Assembly: GCF_014207595.1 (NCBI RefSeq)
Contig: NZ_JACHGY010000001.1
Location: 3,168,836 to 3,232,835, forward strand
DNA from: Algisphaera agarilytica
Lineage (GTDB): Bacteria > Planctomycetota > Phycisphaerae > Phycisphaerales > Phycisphaeraceae
Length of the DNA stretch: 64,000 nucleotides
Direction of reading: 5' to 3'
Shown here: piece after piece, positions 5,205-5,653 of the stretch
Layout: each line of letters begins with the position of its first letter
Position numbering within the stretch: the stretch's first letter is position 1
The notes under the pieces: generated by a model
Database searches by the model: none
Told to the model about the DNA's origin: nothing
What the model saw: only the letters and a program-made list of their open reading frames with translations
Made by a program: the position numbers and the translations under genes

Positions 5205-5653
5205 GTGTGGATGTGACGGCCGCGGGCCTGCCGAGAGGCGGGTCTGAGGAAAGTCCGAACACGACAGGACACGGTGGTGGGTAACACCCACCGGGCGGGC
5301 TGGCGACGGCCCGTTTAGGGATAGCGCAACAGAAAGGAAACCGCCTGGGTCAGTGATGAGTGACGAGTGAACAGTAACGAGTATCGGTTTTGACTCATCA
5401 CTGAGAACTCGTCACTCATCACTGATCCAGGTAAGGGTGAAAGGGTGCGGTAAGAGCGCACCGCTCGCTTGGCGACAGGCGAGGCATGGCAAGCCCCACC
5501 GCGTGCAAACTCAAGCAGCCCCGGAAACGGCTTGCCGTTTCGCCCACGGTCCGTGGTGGGGCGGGTAGAGCGCTTGAGCCCGTCGGCAACGGCGGGCCTA
5601 GAGAAATGGCCGTCCCCCGCAAGGGGAACAAAATTCGGCTTACGGTCCACACA
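5205..5653 (+). ncRNA. rnpB: RNase P RNA, bacterial type A, with expanded P12
   Basis: The catalytic RNA that matures tRNA 5' ends. Conserved blocks appear in the right order: GAGGAAAGTCC (5246-5256), GCGCAACAGAAAGGAAACCGCC (from 5324), the P10/P11 block GGTAAGGGTGAAAGGGTGCGG (5430-5450) and AAGAGCGCACCG after it, then the 3' block AAAATTCGGCTTACGG. P1 is closed by GTGTGG (5205-5210) and CCACAC (5647-5652). At about 449 nt it is longer than the E. coli RNA (377 nt), largely because P12 holds a 76-nt hairpin at 5350-5425 that is related to a repeat found elsewhere in the window. Confidence 0.95.
5350..5425. repeat. GTGATGAGT hairpin, family D, copy inside rnpB helix P12
   Basis: TCAGTGATGAGTGACGAGT (5350-5368) and its exact reverse complement (5407-5425) form a perfect 19-bp stem. 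It is flanked by CCTGG and CCAGG, which are the native base of P12. The loop contains further degenerate GAGT/ACTC units. A related imperfect inverted repeat built from the same words lies at 62872-62945 between two protein genes. Confidence 0.85.

What the first reader, a model, noticed from the sequence alone, without database searches (positions are those of the whole stretch)
5205..5653. RNase P RNA whose P12 helix is made from a genomic repeat
The P12 position of rnpB (between the GGAAACCGCC block and GGTAAGGGTG) holds a 76-nt insert with a perfect 19-bp stem. Its words (GTGATGAGT, ACTCATCAC) recur in an intergenic repeat at 62872-62945. P12 is known to tolerate length change, so a mobile hairpin may have inserted there and been kept as part of the RNA.
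Basis: partly seen in the sequence, partly recalled or inferred. Interest (0 to 1): 0.72.

Follow-up and report, generated by a model that had tools for sequence, protein, structure and literature searches.

The report
Genomic repeat built into RNase P RNA
In this planctomycete the RNA of the tRNA-trimming enzyme RNase P carries, as one of its outer hairpins, a copy of a repeat scattered through the genome, and several related species have put different repeats of their own in the same place.

Summary
rnpB (class A RNase P RNA, 5203-5658) carries in helix P12 a 72-nt palindromic element (5352-5423), one of 23 arm-loop-arm copies found in its genome. The arms are four 7-nt units; loops vary. 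It is the only rnpB match in the genome. The two held same-genus relatives (draft genomes) have ordinary shorter P12s and no match to the repeat, so the insert is lineage-specific, not a class feature.

It goes further than the finding said. Of 83 genomes of the order whose P12 could be cut out, 18 have a P12 of 54 nt or more; only two pairs of these show any sequence likeness, and at least 13 changes are needed on a weakly resolved rnpB tree. Eight long P12s were searched in whole genomes: six are dispersed in their own genome, one is weak, one recurs only in helix P9 of the same gene.

Closest precedent: STRR repeats in cyanobacterial rnpB (Vioque 1997, title seen only). This is a new variant of that kind: in another phylum, recurrent, replacing most of P12. 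How the repeats move and whether the insert stays in the mature RNA are untested. In this genome elements often sit exactly at a hairpin's foot, a lead on targeting.

The parts
5203..5658 (+). rnpB, class A bacterial RNase P RNA (only match in the genome)
   Evidence: RF00010, 266.6 bits, model 1-367; one match in G000
5341..5436 (+). helix P12, greatly lengthened
   Evidence: covariance-model alignment; fold
5352..5423 (+). palindromic repeat element forming most of P12 (31-nt arm, 10-nt loop, 31-nt inverted arm)
   Evidence: arm scan over fetched genome segments and the window; own-genome BLAST matches
5352..5382 (+). 5' arm, four 7-nt units (27 of 31 to the family consensus)
   Evidence: 5' half of P12: lag-7 identity 0.66, p 0.0002
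5393..5423 (+). 3' inverted arm (26 of 31 to the family consensus)
   Evidence: 3' half of P12: lag-7 identity 0.58, p 0.0002
5344..5351 (+). host P12 foot, 5' side (CCTGGGTC), pairs with 5424-5431
   Evidence: sequence, fold
5424..5431 (+). host P12 foot, 3' side (GATCCAGG)
   Evidence: sequence, fold
62871..62944 (+). second copy of the element in the window (31+12+31)
62854..62869 (+). hairpin GGCGGCTAAAGCCGCC ending one base before that copy; its TAA looks like the stop codon of the gene upstream (frame read by eye)

Best explanation
P12 of this RNase P RNA was overwritten, after the split from its nearest held relatives, by a copy of a genome-dispersed palindromic repeat whose arms are tandem 7-nt units. 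The element sits at the tip of a short P12 foot, so its arms stack on the foot and give one long hairpin. The rest of the RNA still fits the class A model, so it should still work. P12 tolerates this because it is a terminal stem of variable length. The same kind of event has happened repeatedly in related Phycisphaerae, with different repeats that are dispersed in the host genome concerned. Shown here: the insert, its repeat family, its absence in the two sister genomes, recurrence with different repeats. Inferred: that the element moved as DNA (rather than by gene conversion or template switching), that the RNA is expressed with the insert kept, and that the insert is near-neutral.
For: Single full-score rnpB. 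23 paired element copies; the P12 arms are typical members (27 and 26 of 31 to consensus; the 46 arms range from 21 to 30), and the whole 64-kb window, scanned with the same threshold, gave only the two elements reported. No match in same-genus G001 and G002, whose collinear rnpB has P12 of 35 and 50 nt; the BLAST match to G001's locus breaks at 5345-5428, which is P12. Own-genome searches of eight long P12s, rows at E<=0.01, with one to three rows of the rnpB itself included: G000 38, G008 77, G024 51, G059 45, G049 12, G025 53. The other five of these queries gave no row in G000 or G001, nor in G002 where it was included (four of the five; not). All-against-all BLAST of the 18 long P12s finds likeness in only two pairs, G020-G038 and G039-G049, over 13-17 nt. 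Long P12 needs at least 13 changes on the rnpB-core tree of 83 rows. Closest filled/empty pair: G058 (76 nt) and G070 (29 nt), core branches 0.011 and 0.016.
Against: Two of eight tested long P12s are not clear copies of dispersed repeats. G030 gave 9 rows, two of them its own rnpB and seven short matches at E 5e-5 to 0.008, with similar weak rows in G044, G008, G015 (3 each), G000 and G012 (1 each). G058's insert matches only its own rnpB, P12 and a 77% copy at P9. Not all repeats are private: G024's also hits G008 (49 rows) and G059 (17), and G049's hits G008 (29) more often than its own 70%-complete genome (12). Eleven further long P12s were not searched. The sister genomes are drafts (G001 78%, G002 91% complete), so their lack of repeats is as good as those assemblies. 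Copies next to G000's three Y1 transposase-like matches were not found. The rnpB tree is weakly resolved (24 of 80 inner branches starred) and leaves G000 apart from G001/G002 in an unresolved fork.
Confidence: 0.87

Rival explanations
1. Ordinary P12 length drift; likeness to the 62872 element is chance.
For: P12 is variable and sometimes lost (PMC2858038, passages), and P12 lengths in the order range from 13 to 145 nt.
Against: 38 own-genome rows at E<=0.01 against one marginal row in 50 relatives; 93 against 8 word counts; P12 arms are within the family's range.
Confidence: 0.02
2. Hairpin copying without a mobile element: the insert came by gene conversion or template switching, using a genomic hairpin or another rnpB helix as donor.
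For: In G058 the P9 and P12 hairpins are 77% alike and match nothing else in its assembly, while sister G070 has short helices at both. In G082 P9 and P12 both hold a related hairpin, GTAG(A/G)TCGG...CGATCTAC.
Against: In G000, G008, G024, G059, G025 and G049 the sequence is dispersed in the genome, which needs some spreading mechanism anyway.
Confidence: 0.35
3. RNase III cuts the long P12 stem, giving a two-piece RNase P RNA, as with the intervening sequences of some 23S rRNAs (recalled).
For: Uninterrupted predicted stem of 26 bp in G000 and of 12 to 25 bp in 15 of the 17 other long P12s; about 20 bp of duplex is a usual RNase III substrate (recalled).
Against: Nothing here tests cleavage; 8 of those 17 have only 6 to 15 uninterrupted bp.
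Confidence: 0.3

Closest known systems
STRR sequences in the rnpB of heterocyst-forming cyanobacteria (Vioque 1997, NAR 25:3471)
   Same: Short tandemly repeated repetitive sequences lie inside rnpB (title, seen in reference lists). That STRRs are 7-nt units dispersed in those genomes and lie in P12 is recalled; a later paper calls P12 sometimes dispensable in cyanobacteria, citing it.
   Different: Different phylum; sequences not compared. Here the element is a two-armed palindrome with its own loop, most of P12 is replaced, and different lineages carry different repeats. The paper itself was not held.
REP/BIME palindromes spread by RAYT (Y1) transposases (recalled definition)
   Same: Short, palindromic, dispersed; Y1_Tnp matches occur in 12 of 12 genomes searched.
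   Different: Arms are 7-nt tandem units; no element copies beside the three Y1 matches of G000, only one stray word. Y1_Tnp is also in genomes with short P12 (G001, G002, G007, G040, G071), so it does not track the trait.
Rickettsia palindromic elements (recalled)
   Same: Palindromic repeats that enter and stay in functional genes, RNA genes included (recalled).
   Different: Not compared by sequence here.
Intervening sequences in 23S rRNA (recalled)
   Same: Hairpin inserts in terminal helices of an essential RNA (recalled).
   Different: Those are cut by RNase III, leaving fragmented rRNA (recalled); processing here is unknown.
Planctomycete RNase P RNA survey (Butler and Fuerst 2004, IJSEM 54:1333)
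   Same: Describes planctomycete rnpB sequence and structure (said in PMC3035237, passage; title).
   Different: Not seen; it could already mention long P12s. Whether it covers Phycisphaerae is unknown to me.

Membership tests
Bacterial RNase P RNA class A (RF00010) | Full-length match above the gathering score | tested here: met
   266.6 bits against 100, model 1-367
STRR-type repeats in rnpB | Tandem 7-nt units (recalled) | tested here: met
   Lag 7 best of lags 3-12 in the 5' half of P12, 0.66, p 0.0002
STRR-type repeats in rnpB | Repeat also dispersed elsewhere in the genome (recalled) | tested here: met
STRR-type repeats in rnpB | Sequence kinship with cyanobacterial STRRs | not tested
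   No cyanobacterial STRR sequence was fetched
REP/BIME with RAYT | Palindromic, dispersed | tested here: met
REP/BIME with RAYT | Copies flank a RAYT (Y1) gene | tested here: not met
   Three Y1_Tnp matches in G000; none of six arm words in their flanks save one GTGATGAGT
MITE | Target-site duplication and a related full-length transposon | not tested
   No formal duplication test and no transposon search beyond PF01797
Split or fragmented RNA (IVS-like) | Insert cut in the mature RNA | not testable with these tools
   Needs RNA data

The most novel reading that the evidence does not exclude
P12 (and at times P9) of RNase P RNA in Phycisphaerae is a hot spot that palindromic repeats active in each lineage overwrite again and again, because the repeats are targeted to hairpins: in this genome elements abut hairpin feet to the base. 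The ribozyme would then be a standing record of which repeats were active in each lineage, some RNAs possibly working in two pieces after RNase III cutting.
Probability: 0.3. Interest if true: 0.75.

Novelty: new variant of a known kind. Interest (0 to 1): 0.6.

Why it matters
It suggests that an essential catalytic RNA repeatedly rebuilds an outer helix from palindromic repeats spreading in its genome, apart from the cyanobacterial case. That gives a natural series (18 long P12s on related cores) for testing how far a ribozyme's periphery is free, and a possible record of repeat activity. The exact abutment of elements to hairpin feet offers a testable targeting rule for an unassigned repeat class.

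Tried and rejected
Chance similarity: rejected. Inheritance across the class: rejected for the order as sampled. RAYT as neighbour of the repeats: no paired copy beside G000's three Y1 matches. Better pairing of the P12 copy than of its sisters, as a sign of RNA-level selection: not shown; its basal 17 bp have no mismatch, but so has one other of the 23 copies, and over 31 bp it has 5 mismatches against a mean of 5.7. Pairing of element flanks around the insert at other copies: not counted. Whether copies lie between genes: not counted. tRNA-like stretches in the rnpB of G005 and G006: ARAGORN finds no tRNA there. Hairpin abutment in G008, G059 and G024: 14 copies outside rnpB (8, 3 and 3) were read by eye and did not show it clearly; not counted. 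Literature: the listings showed no title or abstract start on repeats in planctomycete rnpB; the library is open-licence papers only, and I opened passages of PMC2858038, PMC12306157 (rnpB only as a size marker), PMC4046671, PMC3035237 and PMC4334474. Butler and Fuerst 2004 on planctomycete RNase P RNA was not seen.

Rows dropped: of 93 genomes with an RF00010 match, P12 was cut out in 83, G000 included. Six were not fetched (G083, G090, G093, G094, G097, G099); G005 and G089 failed the text pattern; G041 is masked there; G025's rnpB is split over two contigs, so only its partial P12 was used. Long P12s searched in genomes: 8 of 19 (18 plus G025). The periodicity count left out G058, fetched later.

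Full report
OBSERVATION. The window's rnpB matches RF00010 at 5203-5658 with 266.6 bits over the whole model, and it is the only match in the 4.17-Mb, 6-contig genome G000. The covariance-model alignment puts a long insertion in P12, between ACCGCC and GGTAAGGG. The stretch folds to -59.5 kcal/mol, z -10.5 against 200 shuffles, and the 62868-62950 stretch to -37.1, z -7.4.

THE REPEAT. The word GTGATGAGT occurs 93 times in the genome against 8 for the same word read backwards. The P12 insert as a query gives 68 rows at E<=10 and, slightly trimmed, 38 at E<=0.01 in its own genome; rows on both strands of one copy count twice and the rnpB itself is included. A scan of fetched segments and of the whole window, at 21 of 31 letters or better, found 52 arms, of which 46 form 23 arm-loop-arm elements and 6 stand alone; two of the 23 have an arm at the threshold, and the window yielded only the two elements already known. 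The arm consensus is AGTGATGAGTGAACAGTGAACAGTGATGAGT, four 7-nt units. Loops are 6 to 48 nt and by eye unlike each other. The P12 element is 31+10+31 nt at 5352-5423; its arms match consensus at 27 and 26 of 31 (all 46 arms: 21 to 30), so it is an ordinary member.

SISTERS. Two held genomes share the genus, both drafts (78% and 91% complete). Both have P12 of the CGATGG...CACAGG kind, 35 and 50 nt, in a collinear locus; the BLAST match to G001's locus breaks at 5345-5428, which is P12. The three-way alignment differs mainly in P12 and in other outer stretches and ends. Neither has a match to the repeat; among the 50 relatives searched only G055 has one marginal row, E 0.006. The insert is therefore lineage-specific as far as sampled.

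RECURRENCE. P12 was cut out of 83 of the 93 genomes with an rnpB match (the ten others are listed under Tried and rejected). Lengths of 54 nt or more occur in 14 of 43 genomes of the window's family and in 1 of 13, 0 of 13, 1 of 6 and 2 of 8 genomes of four other families of the order. Among these 18 only G020-G038 and G039-G049 show any likeness, over 13-17 nt. On a tree of the rnpB core, P12 left out, the long state needs at least 13 changes; the tree is weakly resolved, with 24 of 80 inner branches starred. The nearest pair is G058 (76 nt) and G070 (29 nt), whose cores are almost identical.

Eight long P12s were searched in whole genomes, one per call, E<=0.01. Dispersed in their own genome: G000 (38 rows), G008 (77; 0 in 7 others), G024 (51; also G008 49 and G059 17, 0 in 5 others), G059 (45; G024 1, 0 in 6 others), G049 (12; also G008 29, G039 3, G043 3, G046 1, 0 in 3 others), G025 (53; 0 in 7 others); these counts include one to three rows of the rnpB itself. 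Weak: G030, 9 rows, two from its own rnpB and seven short ones, with 11 similar weak rows in five of nine other genomes. Not dispersed: G058, whose only rows are its own rnpB, at P12 and, at 77%, at P9. Reading G058's P9 and P12 side by side, two positions that differ in one arm differ in the other arm so as to keep the pair, which fits selection on the RNA stem. The names P9 and P12 in these relatives rest on position, read by eye.

Period 7 recurs: of 22 P12s of 45 nt or more (G025 partial included, G058 not), lag 7 is the best of lags 3 to 12 in the 5' half in 10, and p is under 0.05 there in 10, uncorrected. The two sets share nine members.

WHERE THE ELEMENTS SIT. In 23 G000 elements, 13 of 46 28-nt flanks hold a perfect stem of 6 bp or more, against 13 of 274 control windows 60 to 400 nt away (Fisher p 6e-6). 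I assume that the controls fall largely in genes, so part of this may be terminators. The position is more telling: of 16 such hairpins within 60 nt of 21 elements (the window's two copies left out), 10 abut the element exactly and one is 1 nt away. Fourteen copies read by eye in G008, G059 and G024 did not show this clearly. In P12 the arrangement differs: the host stem closes around the element.

HOW IT WORKS. The host foot and the first 17 bp of the element form one uninterrupted helix of 26 bp, G-U pairs counted. The joining strands on either side of P12 (J11/12 and J12/11, names recalled) align to the model without insertions. P12 is described as a terminal stem of the specificity domain, without universally conserved nucleotides and sometimes dispensable (PMC2858038, passages). 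Hence the likely effect is a long inert arm on a working ribozyme. That the RNA is expressed and keeps the insert is inferred from its being the only match and from its intact core.

KNOWN OR NEW. Vioque 1997 reported STRR sequences within rnpB of heterocyst-forming cyanobacteria; I saw only the title, in two reference lists, and the paper is not held. Their 7-nt unit and P12 location are recalled. The present case is in another phylum, replaces most of P12 with a two-armed palindrome, and recurs with unlike repeats across a family and some neighbours. The listings showed no report of it. A 2004 survey of planctomycete RNase P RNA exists (Butler and Fuerst; seen only as a citation) and could already mention long P12s.

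Noticed in passing
L273 (G058 rnpB) against L278 (G070 rnpB): P9 and P12 of one RNase P RNA carry related long hairpins (77% alike; two compensated pair changes), while a near-identical sister has short helices at both.
   Followed up: partly
L123 (G082 rnpB): P9 and P12 both hold GTAG(A/G)TCGG...CGATCTAC hairpins.
   Followed up: no
L083 and L086 (G044, G032 rnpB): Long hairpin with CCCCCGGAAG / CTTCCGGGGG ends in the P9 region, P12 ordinary.
   Followed up: no
48986-49163: Another palindromic element with tandem 8-nt arms (ACGCCAAG x4 ... CTTGGCGT x4), 41-nt arms 85% complementary, 96 nt between them.
   Followed up: partly
1118-1154 and 16696-16728: Other 7-nt tandem arrays without an inverted partner of their own in the stretch searched; the first lies in the first part of the reading frame 557-1210 (-), which looks like peptidyl-tRNA hydrolase (recalled, not searched), just before its likely true start.
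   Followed up: no
G000 elements, listed: Repeat copies abut hairpin feet to the base: 10 of 16 nearby hairpins at distance 0.
   Followed up: partly
L091 (G005 rnpB), L092 (G006 rnpB): T-arm-like GTCGCGGGGTTCGAGCCCCGTG beside P12 in G005 and a similar piece in P12 of G006 (by eye); ARAGORN finds no tRNA.
   Followed up: partly
L101, L115 (G025): rnpB is split over two contigs inside P12; two different parts of the partial P12 match dispersed places on their own, as if two repeats were nested.
   Followed up: partly
61110-61222: SAM riboswitch, 79.9 bits.
   Followed up: no
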